A stretch of DNA of 64,000 bases. Source: Planctomycetaceae bacterium. Lineage in GTDB: Bacteria > Planctomycetota > Planctomycetia > Planctomycetales > Planctomycetaceae. The position numbers and the translations under genes are program-made. The stretch covers positions 1-64,000 of the forward strand of contig JAEUII010000392.1 of NCBI GenBank assembly GCA_016795145.1. Reading direction: 5' to 3'. The notes beneath the pieces are model-generated. The model did not search any database, had not been told where the DNA came from, and saw only the letters and a list, made by a program, of their open reading frames with translations. How positions within the stretch are numbered: the stretch's first letter is position 1; every line of letters begins with the position of its first letter. This document shows, one piece after another, positions 50,127 to 59,022 of the stretch.

Positions 50127-50211
50127 GCCGGAGTGGCGAAATGGCAGACGCGTCGGATTCAAAATCCGATAAGGGTAAAACCTTGTGTGGGTTCGAGTCC
50201 CACCTCCGGTA
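50127..50211 (+). tRNA. tRNA-Leu (anticodon CAA)
   Basis: The 85-nt sequence folds as a class II tRNA. The acceptor stem is GCCGGAG/CTCCGGT with discriminator A at 50211. The anticodon loop TTCAAAA gives CAA (50160-50162), reading UUG. There is a variable arm of the leucine type and a T arm ending GTTCGAGTCCCAC. CCA is not encoded. A rho-independent terminator follows 26 bp later. Class II tRNAs are common integration sites, and the accessory cassette lies just beyond. Confidence 0.95.
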
Positions 50212-50237
50212 CTTGAATGATCACGAACTGATACGAA

Positions 50238-50477: not shown

Positions 50478-50549
50478 GGAAGATTCGTCTTCCGGAAATT
50501 GTCTAAAAGATGGTCTAGACGGAATCTTCCGATGCTGGTTTAGACAATT
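50478..50549 (-). terminator. Overlapping inverted repeats at end of AlbA_2 gene
   Basis: AATTGTCTAAA (50497-50507) pairs with TTTAGACAATT (50539-50549), and GGAAGATTC (50478-50486) pairs with GAATCTTCC (50522-50530). The two pairs overlap, so only one can form at a time. The stop codon lies in the middle, inside GTCTAGAC. Confidence 0.55.
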
Positions 50550-52221
50550 CCCACATGGCACCTCTACCGCGTTTGTTATCAACAGGCTGGATCAATCCCA
50601 ATCGACGCATCTCCTGCATCAGATTCGTAATGAAATTGGATTTTTGATCCTCTGACAGTGCATCGGAAATCTTGTCACGCAATAGTTTGTCTACATCCAG
50701 GCGACTCACATTCCCCTGCTTTGTCAGCAGGTCAATCACCATCTTCTTGCCATACTCTTTGTCGATCCCTCGTTTCTTCAGATAGTCGACCATCGTATCC
50801 GTCGCAGCAGCGACCTCCGCTGACACAAAAAGACTTGGTCGTCTGCCCTCGACCAGTTTTTGTGACTTAAGGCTGCGAAACTCATCATCTGACAGCGGCT
50901 TGCCCTTCTGCACTTTGTCCAGGGCAATGACATCCATCAAATCTAGATCCGTTCTATCCGCCAGCATCCACGTGTATTTTTCGTCGATCACCTTTCCAAT
51001 CAGCCGAACCCTGACACGACCGGGTTCGTGCAGTTCGTAGTCCGGCATTGGGAAATTTCGCTGACGCTGCGTCGTAAACATGCGACGGATACCACTGCCA
51101 ACAGTGTCGATCATGCCAAAGTTCACCATAGCAGCTGCGAGGCACGCATTGCGATAATGCTCGGTCGGCTGGTCTCGACGAATCACCTCCTCCACGGTGC
51201 CGGGAAGAAACTCGCCGAGGTTTGTGAACAGCAACCGTTCTGGCTCCTCGATCACATTGATTCGGCCAGACCGCGTGTAGTCCTGATGAGCAATACAATT
51301 GTGAATGGTTTCTCGAACGACCCAGGAGTCGTACTGAGTCACTTCGACCGGGAACAAACTGGCCCGGGGCATGTAACGGTAAGTCAGATTTCGGATCTTT
51401 GCGAAGACTTCGTTCACAGCCAGAATCAGCGGAGTTCCAAAGTGCTGATAGTCTTTTTCGATGCCATCTTCGCCTTTCAGAATCCATGTGATGCGTGCAA
51501 TGGCTGGTGACAGGTAATGATCCGACTCCGGCCTGCCCAGCAGGATGATAGCCGTGCGAGTGAGCTTACCGTCGATACTGACTTTGGTTTTGTTCAGAAA
51601 CGTTTCATCGCCCCATGTATCGACTTCAGCGGCCAGATTCGGATTCTTCTTCTTGAATTCCTGCCGAGCAAAGGCAATCGCCGCTGGGTCAAGGTCCCTG
51701 AGCGTCGCTCCATCGCAGATCACAGCCGACCAGTCAGTGCCTTGCTGACTCAACACCTTCCAGAGTTCTCTTTCCTTTTCTGCATAGTCGGCCAACTTCT
51801 TCTTCAGGCTGCCCACCCGGATGTACTCGGTGCCGTAGAATCGAATCGGCGAGTGCGTGGCTGGTCCAACTTCGAACAGCACAAAATGCTGGCCATTCAG
51901 ATCAGCTTCATGGATCTTGAACGAGATTTGCGGATCGAGTGAACGAGTCAGCCAGTGCTCAAGTTCTTCATTGCCGTGTTTGGCAAGGCGAGGCCTGAAA
52001 TCCGTGCCCCGCAATTCATGAGTTCTATCGTCGATCCCCCAGGCGATGTAGCCCCGGTCCTTGCGAAGCAACGCCAGGGAGTTGGCAATTGCTGAAAGGT
52101 ACTCACCAATCTCTGGATATTTTTCGGAGCCGTGATCGTTGAGTTTGAACTCGACCCATTCCGTTTCGCCAGGCAGTGATTTCAGTTCATCCAGTTTCGA
52201 TTGAAGTTCTGCGGGAGTCAT
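50515..52221 (-). CDS. AlbA_2/Schlafen-type protein with GHKL-like ATPase domain
   Basis: A 568-residue protein. Residues 1-150 match the AlbA_2 (Schlafen-like, COG2865-type) domain: GETEWVEFKLNDHG, then EYLSAIANSLALL and DRGYIAWGIDDRTHELRGT. A C-terminal part from about 270 resembles the HATPase_c_4 domain that usually follows: VRETIHNCIAHQDYTRSGRI (N-box-like), IEEPERLLFTNLGEFLPG and IDTVGSGIRRMF. The last 170 residues look like winged-helix repeats (NVSRLDVDKLLRDKISDALS). The family is known as a transcriptional regulator or in defence loci. It overlaps the partner gene by 4 bp and lies 300 bp after tRNA-Leu, in reverse orientation. GC appears a little lower than its neighbours. Confidence 0.82.
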   Translation of the reverse strand: MTPAELQSKLDELKSLPGETEWVEFKLNDHGSEKYPEIGEYLSAIANSLALLRKDRGYIAWGIDDRTHELRGTDFRPRLAKHGNEELEHWLTRSLDPQISFKIHEADLNGQHFVLFEVGPATHSPIRFYGTEYIRVGSLKKKLADYAEKERELWKVLSQQGTDWSAVICDGATLRDLDPAAIAFARQEFKKKNPNLAAEVDTWGDETFLNKTKVSIDGKLTRTAIILLGRPESDHYLSPAIARITWILKGEDGIEKDYQHFGTPLILAVNEVFAKIRNLTYRYMPRASLFPVEVTQYDSWVVRETIHNCIAHQDYTRSGRINVIEEPERLLFTNLGEFLPGTVEEVIRRDQPTEHYRNACLAAAMVNFGMIDTVGSGIRRMFTTQRQRNFPMPDYELHEPGRVRVRLIGKVIDEKYTWMLADRTDLDLMDVIALDKVQKGKPLSDDEFRSLKSQKLVEGRRPSLFVSAEVAAATDTMVDYLKKRGIDKEYGKKMVIDLLTKQGNVSRLDVDKLLRDKISDALSEDQKSNFITNLMQEMRRLGLIQPVDNKRGRGAMWELSKPASEDSV

Positions 52222-52784
52222 GGCGTGATCTTCTCGGTGTTGGTCTTTAGATTGAAGAGCCTGGCGACCAGTTCAGTGGTTGTATTGACGCGGTGAAAGC
52301 GAGTCTTTGGAACAACTCTGATCAACGGTCGTACTGCCTTCACGCCGTCTTTGTTCCCCTTGGTGTGCTTGCCCACTTTGAGGTCGTCTGGCAATAACAA
52401 CGGTTGCCCGGCGTCGGCTCCGAAGAACAAGTAGCTCAGCGTCATTCGATGGTTCTCTTCGTGTCGCTGAATCCAGACGACGCATCCGCTGGGCTTTGTT
52501 GCCAGTGCCACATTGATTTTATGCCCCGCCGTTCTCGCTCCTGCTGCGGATGTTTTCAACTGGACATGTCTCAGGATTCCATTGCATTCAAGCACTACAT
52601 CATAGCCCGATGCGTCCACTTCAGACCGGAGCACTTCGACCGTCTGCCCGAAACGGAACCAGACTTCCTGGAGGACTTCGGAAATGAAGACATGCTCGAC
52701 AAGTTGTTCGTAGAACGAAGACTTGCGATAGGTGTCTTCGTGAGAAATCAAAACTTTGGTGTACGGTTCCGATGGTTCTGTCAT
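52218..52784 (-). CDS. PD-(D/E)XK-nuclease-like protein
   Basis: A 188-residue protein. The segment EVDASGYDVVLECNGILRHV followed by QLKTS has the pattern of the PD-(D/E)XK nuclease fold: D62 at the end of a strand, then Q75-x-K77 on the next strand, with Glu residues on the preceding helix (E30, E36, E40). The rest alternates strands and helices, and there is no signal peptide. It would cleave DNA or RNA, but activity is not proven. It is the first gene of the cassette, overlapping the AlbA_2 gene by 4 bp (ATGA), so the two are co-translated. Confidence 0.7.
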   Translation of the reverse strand: MTEPSEPYTKVLISHEDTYRKSSFYEQLVEHVFISEVLQEVWFRFGQTVEVLRSEVDASGYDVVLECNGILRHVQLKTSAAGARTAGHKINVALATKPSGCVVWIQRHEENHRMTLSYLFFGADAGQPLLLPDDLKVGKHTKGNKDGVKAVRPLIRVVPKTRFHRVNTTTELVARLFNLKTNTEKITP

Positions 52785-55250: not shown

Positions 55251-55365
55251 TAAAGCGCTCACGTCTGAATGTTGGTGAAGAGGAAGCCAGGCTGTTCGGC
55301 GATGTAGCACCGTCCGGTCGTTCGTTCTGCAGCTTCTGAGAAATCCGCAAGATCTCTGTTGTCCT

Positions 55366-55404
55366 TTATCGTTGATCGACGATATTATCGTTCATCAACG
55401 ATAA
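55366..55404. promoter_or_regulatory. ArsR operator-like inverted repeat
   Basis: TTATCGTTGAT (55366-55376) and ATCAACGATAA (55394-55404) are an exact 11-bp inverted repeat, with ACGATA-T-TATCGT nested inside. It lies about 50 bp before the arsR start, where ArsR repressors bind. An AT-rich promoter probably overlaps it. Confidence 0.7.
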
Positions 55405-55454
55405 GAGGCGTTTTGGCCTGTTCCGTTAAGGTCAGTTCGCAGGAGATTACAGCT

Positions 55455-55790
55455 ATGGCCAAACGTCGTTCAGCCAGCGCAAAGTGCTGCGATGACGCGT
55501 CGCCGTGCGTGTTGCCATCGGATCAATCGGCCGAGCAATTTGCTTCGCTGGCCTGGGCACTGGCTCACCCGGCGCGGGTGCGAATTGTTCGACTGCTGAT
55601 TTCGCGCGACACGTGTGTCTGCGGCGAGATCGTTGATGAGATGCCGCTGGCTCAGTCGACGGTCTCCCAGCACCTGAAGATCCTGAAAGAATCGGGTCTG
55701 GTGCAGGGAGAAGTTGATGGTCCCAAAGTCTGCTACTGCATCAATCCGGAAAAACTCGCCATGCTGAAGTCGCTGGTCGCTTCGCTTTAG
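55455..55790 (+). CDS. arsR: ArsR-family metalloid-responsive repressor
   Basis: A 111-residue winged-helix regulator. The helix-turn-helix is [20 protein letters not shown], followed by the wing [15 protein letters not shown]. The metal site [10 protein letters not shown] (C54, C56) matches the ELCVCDL-type arsenite motif of ArsR. Extra cysteines in the N-terminal tail (C11, C12, C18) and CYC near the C-terminus may join in binding. It should repress the ars genes until As(III) binds. ATG 55455 has AGGAG 9 bp upstream; the frame from 55359 crosses the operator. It is first in the group arsR-arsD-arsA-arsC-like. Confidence 0.93.
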
Positions 55791-55938
55791 TGCATGCTGC
55801 GGGATCCTCCCTTTTGAAATCACGAACCCACCCAGAACTCGCGAATTTGTAATCGCCTTTCGACGATGAACGATCGAGCGGCAATCAGCGACCTTTCGAA
55901 GACACCCGAAACCCATACCAATCTGACAGGAATTATCC

Positions 55939-56346
55939 ATGACCACCACTCTACAGATCTATGACCGTCCGATGTGTTGTTCGACTGGCATTTGCGGGCC
56001 GAGTGTTGATCCTGTACTGCCTCGGTTTGCTGCGGACCTTGACGTGCTGCGAAAGGCTGGCGTTATCGTTGACCGTTACAATCTTGCCCAGCAGCCACAG
56101 GCCTTCGTTGAAAACGCGGAGATCCAGACGCTGATGGCTTCGGCCGGAGTTGACGTTCTGCCGGTCACCGTCGTCAACGGACGCGTCGTGAGCCGTGGGC
56201 TGTATCCATCGCTGGAGTTATTGCAGCAATGGACGGGCGTTGCGGGAAACACAGTTCCCGCTGCCGTTGCTTCGCCGGCGAAGTCACTGCTCTCATTGCC
56301 TGTGATGGATCAGGGGTGCTGCAGTGAATCATCGGGCTGCTGCTAA
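55939..56346 (+). CDS. arsD: Arsenite metallochaperone ArsD
   Basis: A 135-residue ArsD with a thioredoxin-like fold. It has the defining YDRPMCCSTGICGPSVDP motif: C13, C14 and C19 bind As(III) and pass it to ArsA. VDVLPVTVVNGRVVSRGLYP is the core strand-turn. The C-terminus carries two cysteine pairs (QGCC and GCC, C127-C128, C134-C135) that also occur in some ArsD and add binding sites. It lies 150 bp after arsR. An IR4 repeat separates it from arsA. Confidence 0.94.
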   Translation: MTTTLQIYDRPMCCSTGICGPSVDPVLPRFAADLDVLRKAGVIVDRYNLAQQPQAFVENAEIQTLMASAGVDVLPVTVVNGRVVSRGLYPSLELLQQWTGVAGNTVPAAVASPAKSLLSLPVMDQGCCSESSGCC

Positions 56347-56350
56347 AGGC

Positions 56351-56442
56351 CTGTTGAAAAAGCCATCGTTATTCCCTCGCAGGCGGGAATCCATGATCGG
56401 TGAGACTCAGGAATACTGGGTTCCCGCCTGCGCGGGAATGAC
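56351..56442. repeat. IR4 repeat between arsD and arsA
   Basis: CTGTTGAAAAAGCCATCGTT leads to a CCC...GGCGGGAA hairpin, CCATGATCGGTGAGACTCAG, then TTCCCGC/GCGGGAA. It matches the 34640 copy in order and in about 85 percent of positions by eye. It sits inside the ars operon. Confidence 0.83.
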
Positions 56443-56547
56443 GGGATAGCATGGCAGACTTTGCCCGTAAGTTGCTAACGATGGTACTGCAGGGGTCACA
56501 ACGAATGCGAACGATCTGGCACGCAGCATCATGAACCGAGGTTAATC

Positions 56548-58377
56548 ATGGATTTCCTGACACATCCGACTCGCAATCTGTTTTTCACCGGAAAAGGCGG
56601 CGTCGGCAAGACGTCTGTTGCCTGTGCGATTGCTGTGAAACTTGCAGACCAGGGAAAGCACGTCCTTCTGGTTTCGACAGATCCGGCATCGAATTTGGAT
56701 GAGGTGCTTGGGACTTCGCTCCTTCGTCAGCCGACGCCGATTCCTTCGATTCCCAATCTCTTCGCCCTGAACCTGGACCCGGAGCAGGCTGCGGCGGACT
56801 ATCGGGAAAAGATGGTTGGACCTTATCGGGCCTTGTTGCCCGCCGCGGCCATCGCGAGCATGGAAGAACAGTTCTCCGGATCGTGCACGCTGGAGATTGC
56901 GGCGTTCGATGAGTTCTCCAGGTTGCTCGGAGATGTCTCTGCAACGAACCAGTTTGATCACGTCATTTTCGACACGGCTCCGACCGGGCATACTCTTCGA
57001 TTGCTGACACTGCCGTCTGCATGGGTCGGGTTTCTGGAGAAGAACTCCACCGGCACTTCCTGTCTTGGCCCTCTGGCCGGCCTTCAGACTCAGCAGGCAC
57101 TGTACCAGCAGACGGTCGCAGCTCTGAGTGATGTCAACACAACGACTCTGGTCCTCGTCACTCGCGCGGAGGCGACTGCGTTTCGTGAAGCGGCGAGAAC
57201 CAGCGGTGAACTTCGTGCACTGGGTGTTTCGAATCAGCATCTTGTTGTGAATGCGGTGTTCAGAGCCACGGACGTAACGGATGCGGTGGCAGTGGCGATG
57301 CAGCGGCGAGGCGACAAGGCACTGGCCGAAATGCCTGCAGCGTTGAGCGGTCTTCCGAGAACCATTCTTCCGATGACAAGTGGTGGTCTCCTGGGTGCTG
57401 CCGCTCTCCGACAGCTTGTGTCGACGGCCACAGCCACACACTCTGGTGCGACGAGCCATGACATCGCTGCGAAAAAAGATCATCCATCACTCACCATTCT
57501 TGCGTCGCTCTCATCGCTGATGGATGAGCTTGCAGCACCGGGCCATGGCGTGATCCTGACCATGGGCAAAGGAGGCGTCGGAAAGACAACGATTGCCGCT
57601 GCCATCGCGGTTGCACTTGCGGATCGCGGCCTCGACGTCTTGTTGTCCACCACTGATCCCGCGGCTCATATCGCGGCCGCAGTCTCAGGTGATCAGCATC
57701 CCAATCTGAAGGTGACGCGCATTGATCCGGTCGCGGAAACAGCCCGCTATTCTCAGGAAGTGCTCAACACAGCCGGAGCGGGGCTCGACGCTGCCGGGCT
57801 CGCTCTGCTTGAAGAAGATCTTCGTTCCCCCTGCACCGAAGAGATTGCGGTCTTTCGAGCGTTCGCGAAAGCTGTCGCCGAGGGGACTCGGCGCTTTGTT
57901 GTGCTCGACACCGCACCAACAGGTCATACCGTCCTGCTGCTGGACTCTGCACTCGCCTATCATCGCGAAGTGACTCGCCAGGCAAGTGGCATGCCGGAGT
58001 CAGTTGAACAGTTGCTCCCGCGCCTGCGGGATCCGGAGATGACGCGAGTGATGATCGTTGCCCTTCCGGAAGCGACGCCTGTTCACGAGGCGGCTCAGCT
58101 TCAGCGTGACTTGAGAAGGGCTCAAATTGAACCCTTCGCCTGGGTCCTCAATCAGTGCCTTGCTCCGCTAACGGTCTCGGATCCTCTGCTTGTCCATCGG
58201 CAGGCTCATGAGACAAGATTTGTCGACGAGGTCACCCGCGAACATGCTCGCAGGGCTGCCATGGTCGCCTGGCAATCGGAAGCTCCTGTCGGCCCGGACG
58301 CCTTGAGAAAGCTCATGAACTTTGGCGGCCAGGATTCTGCCGCTGCGAATAACACCAATACCAACCGTAACCTGTGA
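56548..58377 (+). CDS. arsA: Arsenite-stimulated ATPase ArsA
   Basis: A 609-residue tandem ATPase. Each half has a deviant Walker A (FFTGKGGVGKTSVACAIAV near residue 15; ILTMGKGGVGKTTIAAAIAV near 345) and a DTAPTGHTLRLL / DTAPTGHTVLLL switch II signature. Cysteines in GSCTLEIAAFDEF, GTSCLGPLAG and SPCTEEIAVFRAF would hold As(III). It powers an ArsB or Acr3 arsenite pump and takes arsenite from ArsD. No pump gene is seen in the window, so it must be elsewhere or ArsA has another partner. The ATG at 56548 is supported by the start MDFLTHPTRNLFF. Confidence 0.95.
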   Translation: MDFLTHPTRNLFFTGKGGVGKTSVACAIAVKLADQGKHVLLVSTDPASNLDEVLGTSLLRQPTPIPSIPNLFALNLDPEQAAADYREKMVGPYRALLPAAAIASMEEQFSGSCTLEIAAFDEFSRLLGDVSATNQFDHVIFDTAPTGHTLRLLTLPSAWVGFLEKNSTGTSCLGPLAGLQTQQALYQQTVAALSDVNTTTLVLVTRAEATAFREAARTSGELRALGVSNQHLVVNAVFRATDVTDAVAVAMQRRGDKALAEMPAALSGLPRTILPMTSGGLLGAAALRQLVSTATATHSGATSHDIAAKKDHPSLTILASLSSLMDELAAPGHGVILTMGKGGVGKTTIAAAIAVALADRGLDVLLSTTDPAAHIAAAVSGDQHPNLKVTRIDPVAETARYSQEVLNTAGAGLDAAGLALLEEDLRSPCTEEIAVFRAFAKAVAEGTRRFVVLDTAPTGHTVLLLDSALAYHREVTRQASGMPESVEQLLPRLRDPEMTRVMIVALPEATPVHEAAQLQRDLRRAQIEPFAWVLNQCLAPLTVSDPLLVHRQAHETRFVDEVTREHARRAAMVAWQSEAPVGPDALRKLMNFGGQDSAAANNTNTNRNL

Positions 58378-58386
58378 GAACCGAAG

Positions 58387-59022
58387 ATGACAACCAGCCA
58401 CCTTTACCCTGAACTCAGTGCTTACGTGGCCGATCGGCTGCGGGAATTTGAACTCATCAGTGTTGAGCGAAAAGCCGAACTGCAGCAGCTGTCGGATTAT
58501 GTTACGCGTTGTCGTCAGCAGGGGAAGCCTTCGCGACTGACCTTCGTGTGTACTCATAATTCGCGTCGTAGCCACCTGACACAGGTCTGGGCTCAGATCG
58601 CGGCGGCCTGCTGTGGCGTCGAGGGAGTTCAGACATTTTCCGGCGGCACGGAAGTCACCGCCTGCAATCCTCGCACAGTAGCCGCGCTCAAGCGAGCCGG
58701 TCTGCACATTGTTGCTGACGATCCGGCGAAGGCGAATCCTCGATACTCAGTGTCATGGTCCGACCAGAGCACGCCATTGATTTGTTATTCCAAGGTGTTT
58801 AACGAATCCCCCAATCCCACTTCCGATTATTGCGCGATCATGACGTGCTCACACGCCGACCAGAATTGTCCGATCGCGATCGGCTGTGACCTTCGACTGG
58901 CGATTCGATACGAAGATCCGAAAGTCTCGGATGACACGCCTGCGGAGTCATCCGTATACGATGAGCGGTGTCGTCAGGTTGCACGGGAGATGCTGTTCGC
59001 GATGTCTCACGCAGGCAATTAG
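58387..59022 (+). CDS. arsC: Low-MW-phosphatase-type arsenate reductase
   Basis: A 211-residue protein of the thioredoxin-coupled arsenate reductase / low-molecular-weight phosphatase fold. The P-loop is VCTHNSRRSHLTQ (C55-x5-R61), preceded by a leader helix of about 50 residues that the short ArsC lacks. IMTCSHADQNCPIA carries a cysteine pair placed like C82/C89 of S. aureus ArsC. DPKVSDDTPAESSVYDERC is the usual C-terminal motif. It should reduce arsenate to arsenite. It starts 9 bp after arsA and so belongs to the same mRNA. The N-terminal extension is unusual. Confidence 0.85.
   Translation: MTTSHLYPELSAYVADRLREFELISVERKAELQQLSDYVTRCRQQGKPSRLTFVCTHNSRRSHLTQVWAQIAAACCGVEGVQTFSGGTEVTACNPRTVAALKRAGLHIVADDPAKANPRYSVSWSDQSTPLICYSKVFNESPNPTSDYCAIMTCSHADQNCPIAIGCDLRLAIRYEDPKVSDDTPAESSVYDERCRQVAREMLFAMSHAGN

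What the first reader, a model, noticed from the sequence alone, without database searches (positions are those of the whole stretch)
50515..52784. Co-translated AlbA_2/GHKL protein and PD-(D/E)XK-like nuclease beside tRNA-Leu
Two genes overlap by 4 bp on the minus strand right after tRNA-Leu(CAA). One couples a Schlafen/AlbA_2 domain to a GHKL-like ATPase fold and winged-helix-like tail; the partner carries a D...QxK nuclease pattern (D62, Q75, K77). A sensor/ATPase plus nuclease next to a class II tRNA is the layout of anti-phage or mobile-element systems. AlbA_2 and nuclease families are known separately; this pairing as a stand-alone cassette I do not recognise as a named system.
Basis: partly seen in the sequence, partly recalled or inferred. 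Interest (0 to 1): 0.72.

Follow-up and report, generated by a model that had tools for sequence, protein, structure and literature searches.

The report
RM-type Schlafen sensor with portable nuclease
Two overlapping genes in this Planctomycetota genome encode a Schlafen/GHKL protein of the kind found inside restriction-modification operons and a small unnamed PD-(D/E)XK nuclease that turns up beside many unrelated defence genes; both parts are real defence-type proteins, but their pairing is not a conserved system.

Summary
A 568-aa gene (SLFN_AlbA_2 + HATPase_c_4) overlaps a 188-aa gene by 4 bp on the minus strand, about 300 bp from tRNA-Leu(CAA). The small protein is very probably a PD-(D/E)XK nuclease: E26, D62, Q75 and K77 are invariant in 24 relatives, 21 of 24 touch Pfam PDDEXK_5, and the AlphaFold model matches Hjc, I-Ssp6803I, SPARDA and HincII. 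The interpretation needs changing. No nuclease relative lies near any of 23 relatives of the large gene; 1 of 30 nuclease loci has a (distant) Schlafen/GHKL neighbour. That one (L006) is telling: hsdM-hsdS-nuclease-Schlafen/GHKL-hsdR, same order as the window. Many close relatives of the large protein sit in type I or type III restriction operons; no restriction gene was found in the window. The nuclease is a roaming gene, often directly upstream of defence genes (Shedu SduA, HsdM, KAP, NucS-like). One 53%-identical relative of the large protein carries TIR in place of AlbA_2, so AlbA_2 is probably the effector and GHKL-wHTH the trigger. Best reading: an orphaned restriction-accessory module, RNase-type effector plus DNase, acting in phage defence. 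The tRNA link has no support. Function is inferred, not tested.

The parts
50515..52221 (-). 568-aa SLFN_AlbA_2 / HATPase_c_4 (GHKL) protein, RM-accessory type
   Evidence: ORF; Pfam; relatives inside type I/III RM operons; Foldseek best match 3LMM, E 4.6e-11 (on a low-confidence model)
51793..52167 (-). AlbA_2/Schlafen domain, residues 19-143; E19, E24 and D65 match the E-x4-E...D carboxylate triad of SLFN13
   Evidence: SLFN13 triad from PMC5862951. E19/E24 invariant in A3 and A4; D65 is D or N in the RM-linked set
51004..51261 (-). HATPase_c_4 (GHKL-like) domain, residues 321-406 (Pfam span), with the conserved E304xxxN308xxAH312 box just upstream and GxG375-377 inside
50542..50820 (-). helical C-terminal tail, residues about 468-560, possible winged helix
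   Evidence: model secondary structure, moderate confidence; architecture as in PMC12839542
52218..52784 (-). 188-aa PD-(D/E)XK nuclease-like protein; first gene of the pair, overlaps the large gene by 4 bp
52455..52709 (-). nuclease core, residues 26-110, with invariant E26, D62, Q75, K77
52317..52367 (-). second conserved basic motif H140-x-K142...G147-x-K149...R152...R156, a loop after the core, probably nucleic-acid binding (inference)
50127..50212 (+). tRNA-Leu(CAA); neighbour only, no evidence that it belongs to the module

Best explanation
The two genes are accessory genes of the restriction-modification (RM) kind, here standing alone without methylase, specificity or restriction subunits. 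The large protein is a Schlafen-type effector (probably an RNase acting on tRNA-like RNA) carried on a GHKL ATP-binding plus winged-helix trigger. The small protein is a PD-(D/E)XK DNase that travels between defence systems. The 4-bp overlap suggests co-translation. Most likely mechanism: the GHKL/wHTH part senses an infection cue (for example inhibited restriction or foreign nucleic acid) and unleashes the Schlafen domain to stop translation, while the nuclease cuts invading DNA. Shown: gene structure, families, invariant catalytic-type residues, predicted nuclease fold, RM linkage of relatives, domain swap with TIR. Inferred: activities, the trigger, cooperation between the two proteins, and present function in this host.
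For: RM linkage of the large protein: 42-55% identical full-length relatives lie between HsdM/HsdS and HsdR (L056, L061, L063) or between Mod and Res (L047, L048, L057, L060) (Pfam-confirmed for L056, L057, L047). The window's own genome holds a complete hsdM-hsdS-AlbA_2/GHKL-hsdR operon on another contig. One nuclease locus, L006, reads hsdM-hsdS-nuclease-AlbA_2/GHKL-hsdR, the same gene order as the window. No match of 27 RM/defence reference proteins is found in the window. Effector logic: L064 carries TIR_2 (4.8e-24) where AlbA_2 should be, on a chassis 53% identical to the window protein. Nuclease: invariant E26/D62/Q75/K77, PDDEXK_5 in 21 of 24, model pLDDT 82.8 with matches to Hjc Z 8.6, SPARDA 8.2, I-Ssp6803I 6.9 and HincII 6.4.
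Against: The AlbA_2 protein in L006 is only a distant relative (17% identity to the window protein), so the window pair is not a simple deletion product of that operon. Some close relatives of the large protein (L055, L065) have no recognised RM gene nearby, so it can stand alone. Position 65 is N in several RM-linked relatives, so RNase activity is not certain. No experiment or expression data.
Confidence: 0.6

Rival explanations
1. A genuine stand-alone two-gene defence system: the GHKL-Schlafen protein senses and the co-translated PD-(D/E)XK protein is its dedicated effector nuclease.
For: 4-bp overlap, both genes intact with catalytic-type residues kept; the same gene order in L006; the nuclease is tightly coupled to other defence genes elsewhere.
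Against: No nuclease relative near any of 23 loci with relatives of the large gene and an AlbA_2 gene in only 1 of 30 nuclease loci; both families are patchy and found apart.
Confidence: 0.2
2. Two unrelated mobile defence genes that came to lie together by chance in a tolerant intergenic spot, each working (or decaying) on its own.
For: The nuclease is mobile: it occurs on plasmids (37 records, 21 conjugative) and viral contigs and next to many different genes; the flanking gene order is not conserved in relatives.
Against: The 4-bp overlap and the shared order in an RM operon (L006) suggest joint acquisition; both reading frames are intact.
Confidence: 0.17
3. A mobile-element cargo inserted at the tRNA-Leu(CAA) gene.
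For: Position about 300 bp from the tRNA 3' end.
Against: No duplicate of the tRNA 3' end within the window at up to 3 mismatches, no integrase seen, no marked compositional jump.
Confidence: 0.03

Closest known systems
AlbA_2/HATPase_c_4 ('RecG-like', RNA-binding domain-containing) genes inside type I and type III RM operons; also Schlafen-mini-histidine kinase-wHTH proteins of BREX systems (PMC12839542)
   Same: Same domain order; close relatives sit between HsdS and HsdR or Mod and Res
   Different: In the window no RM gene was found; the partner is a PD-(D/E)XK protein
3LMM (DIP2311, C. diphtheriae) and SLFN11/SLFN13 N-terminal domains
   Same: 3LMM and SLFN11 are the best structural matches of the large protein; E-x4-E...D triad matches SLFN13
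   Different: Low sequence identity; RNase activity not tested; D65 not fully conserved in relatives
PDDEXK_5 / I-Ssp6803I-type PD-(D/E)XK nucleases, archaeal Hjc, SPARDA nuclease subunit
   Same: Fold and D...QxK active site
   Different: Window protein is below the Pfam cut-off, has an extra conserved HxKGN...GxK..R motif, and has no significant match in NCBIfam, PHROGs or PADLOC
L006 type I RM operon (Planctomycetaceae MAG DNWZ01000546)
   Same: Nuclease followed by AlbA_2/GHKL gene; nuclease about 65% identical
   Different: Embedded between hsdS and hsdR; its AlbA_2 protein belongs to another subfamily; 133 bp gap instead of overlap

Membership tests
PD-(D/E)XK nuclease superfamily | Conserved acidic and QxK/ExK catalytic residues | tested here: met
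   E26, D62, Q75, K77 invariant in 24 sequences
PD-(D/E)XK nuclease superfamily | alpha-beta core fold | tested here: met
   AlphaFold pLDDT 82.8; top structural matches are nearly all PD-(D/E)XK nucleases, best Z 8.6, Foldseek best E 1.7e-3. Z values are modest
Pfam PDDEXK_5 (PF11645) | Score over the curated cut-off (26.1 bits) | tested here: not met
   Window 14.7 bits; 21 of 24 relatives match at E <= 0.1, best 1.9e-7
SLFN_AlbA_2 (PF04326) | Score over the curated cut-off | tested here: met
   59.6 against 25.3 bits
HATPase_c_4 (PF13749) | Score over the curated cut-off | tested here: met
   45.3 against 26 bits
Schlafen RNase (SLFN13-like) | Three-carboxylate active site | tested here: inconclusive
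   E19, E24, D65 present and aligned, but position 65 is N in several relatives
Schlafen RNase (SLFN13-like) | RNA cleavage activity | not testable with these tools
   needs assay
Type I / III RM system | Methylase, specificity and restriction subunits encoded together | tested here: not met
   No match of 27 RM/defence reference proteins in the window at E <= 0.01
Conserved two-gene system (nuclease + AlbA_2/GHKL) | Recurrent adjacency in other genomes | tested here: not met
   0 of 23 and 1 of 30 loci
Known defence system in PADLOC | Significant match to a catalogued system | tested here: not met
   Only partial hits: Aga_SIR2 profiles over residues 278-388 of the large protein (4.7e-8), HEase 0.015 for the nuclease

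The most novel reading that the evidence does not exclude
The small protein founds an unnamed family of portable PD-(D/E)XK nucleases that plug in, by translational coupling as the upstream gene, to many unrelated defence effectors (type I RM, Shedu SduA, KAP ATPase, NucS-like, and here a Schlafen/GHKL protein), so that the window pair is a dual DNase-RNase module free of any methylase.
Probability: 0.2. Interest if true: 0.6.

Novelty: new member of a known kind. Interest (0 to 1): 0.38.

Why it matters
It replaces a proposed new system by a better supported picture: a restriction-accessory Schlafen/GHKL protein with an exchangeable effector (AlbA_2 or TIR), and an uncatalogued, widely mobile PD-(D/E)XK family coupled to many defence genes. 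The TIR/AlbA_2 swap gives a direct test of whether RM-linked AlbA_2 genes are back-up suicide effectors. The nuclease family could serve as a marker for finding defence genes.

Tried and rejected
Conserved cassette: rejected by neighbour counts. tRNA-borne integration: no att duplication (my first pattern was mistyped and is void), no compositional shift. Empty-site comparison: the flanking genes are not syntenic in 12 related genomes, so no empty site could be defined. RM remnants in the flanks: only chance-level matches. Phage records: no nuclease match in INPHARED, though six IMG/VR contigs carry it. The profile search of viral contigs with the large protein gave nothing; the single-sequence search gave five distant relatives. 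The AlphaFold model of the large protein is poor outside the N-terminal domain, probably because only five sequences were used; its GHKL region was judged by Pfam instead. Promoter/terminator scan: at chance level.

Full report
What is there. The window (a Planctomycetota genome, judging from its relatives; assembly of 8.1 Mb in 473 contigs) holds two minus-strand genes: a 188-aa gene at 52218-52784 followed by a 568-aa gene at 50515-52221, overlapping by 4 bp. tRNA-Leu(CAA) lies at 50127-50212 on the other strand. Neighbours are ordinary chromosomal genes by inspection: TatC, an aminotransferase, a TPR-like lipoprotein and an arsenic cluster.

The large protein. Pfam gives SLFN_AlbA_2 (59.6 bits, cut-off 25.3) and HATPase_c_4 (45.3 bits, cut-off 26). 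In 12 full-length relatives E19, E21, E24, K26, the E304-N308-H312 box and G375-x-G377 are invariant. SLFN13's catalytic carboxylates are Glu205, Glu210 and Asp248 (PMC5862951); E19 and E24 have the same spacing and D65 is the natural third, invariant in the A4 set but N in several RM-linked relatives. The model is poor (pLDDT 51.6) except for the N-terminal domain; its best PDB matches are 3LMM and SLFN11.

Where its relatives live. In 294 sampled genomes of the phylum 28 have a match at 1e-20 or better. Many of the closest relatives sit in RM operons: HsdM...AlbA-HsdR in L056, HsdM...HsdS...AlbA...HsdR in L061 and L063, Mod-AlbA-Res in L057 and L060 (Pfam), and Mod-AlbA-Res on alphaproteobacterial plasmids, one of them cut at the record start. 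A more distant one (L070) is in HsdM-HsdS-AlbA-HsdR. Some (L055, L065) have no recognised RM gene nearby. The window's own genome has a complete hsdM-hsdS-AlbA-hsdR operon on contig 272 with another subfamily member. The same architecture, Schlafen RNase with minimal histidine kinase and wHTH, is reported next to BREX loci in at least 1017 taxa, among the back-up suicidal effectors (PMC12839542).

An effector swap. L064 is 53% identical to the window protein from about residue 160 on but begins with a TIR domain (TIR_2, 4.8e-24; ThsB_TIR 7.9e-6) instead of AlbA_2. TIR domains are common defence effectors (established knowledge). The simplest reading is that AlbA_2 and TIR are alternative effectors on a shared GHKL-based trigger. 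This is inference from one clear case.

The small protein. Twenty-four sequences from Planctomycetota, Proteobacteria and a viral contig keep E26, D62, Q75 and K77, plus a later basic motif (H140, G147, K149, R152). PDDEXK_5 is touched by 21 of 24 (best 1.9e-7), though the window member alone is below cut-off. A profile search of the PDB finds I-Ssp6803I at E 0.01 over the D...QxK segment. The AlphaFold model (pLDDT 82.8, pTM 0.78) matches SPARDA, I-Ssp6803I and HincII by Foldseek (best E 1.7e-3) and Hjc (Z 8.6), SPARDA (8.2), I-Ssp6803I (6.9), HincII (6.4) by VIA-align. These scores are modest but agree with the motif.

Where the nuclease lives. It is rare and scattered: 2 of 294 phylum genomes, 37 plasmids, 21 of them conjugative, six viral contigs, no INPHARED phage. 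It often abuts defence genes, mostly as the upstream gene: HsdM (L014, gap 0), Shedu SduA (L013, -4), KAP NTPase (L007, 0), a NucS-like/DUF7669 protein (L008, L009, L011, 76-77 bp), after HsdS (L006, -8), just after an MmeI-type enzyme (L068) and downstream of HsdMSR (L054). Only selected neighbours were scanned with Pfam, so no enrichment statistic is claimed. Other copies sit in plasmid and prophage cargo with no defence gene recognised.

Do the two belong together? HMMs of each family were run over the loci of the other: 0 of 23 large-gene loci have the nuclease and 1 of 30 nuclease loci has an AlbA_2/GHKL gene. That one, L006, is an HsdM-HsdS-nuclease-AlbA_2/GHKL-HsdR operon (HsdM and HsdR cut by the contig ends), with the same order but a distantly related AlbA_2 protein (17% identity). 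No RM protein matches the window. So the pair looks like an RM-accessory module detached from RM, assembled or captured once, rather than a recurrent system.

tRNA. No second copy of the 22-nt tRNA 3' end is in the window, GC is unremarkable, and 12 family genomes lack a leucine tRNA at the aminotransferase locus. The adjacency is not evidence of a mobile element.

Conclusion. Observation confirmed; interpretation partly supported. Activities and joint action remain untested.

Noticed in passing
L064:8310-9944: TIR_2 domain replaces AlbA_2 on a GHKL chassis 53% identical to the window protein: an effector swap in an RM-accessory family.
   Followed up: partly
L008, L009, L011 (nuclease followed at 76-77 bp by a 314-aa gene): A recurrent planctomycete pair: the PD-(D/E)XK protein with a DUF7669/NucS_C-like protein; a better candidate for a conserved cassette than the window pair.
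   Followed up: partly
L013:5947-7796: The nuclease overlaps a Shedu SduA gene by 4 bp in Arsukibacterium.
   Followed up: no
L012:6010-6888 and L050:8695-9534: The nuclease is fused to an integrase SAM-like domain, at the C-terminus in one and the N-terminus in the other (Pfam hint only in L050, 0.0041; L012 by inspection).
   Followed up: partly
L047:3158-13801 (also L048): Plasmid operon helicase-DUF4391-Mod-AlbA_2/GHKL-Res: type III RM with extra helicase and DUF4391; only one paper in the held library mentions DUF4391.
   Followed up: no
window 55359-59022: Arsenic cluster: ArsR-like, ArsD-like, a double ArsA-like ATPase and an arsenate-reductase-like protein (by inspection).
   Followed up: no
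G000:C272 (L162:5515-13690): Complete type I RM operon hsdM-hsdS-AlbA_2/GHKL-hsdR in the same genome.
   Followed up: partly
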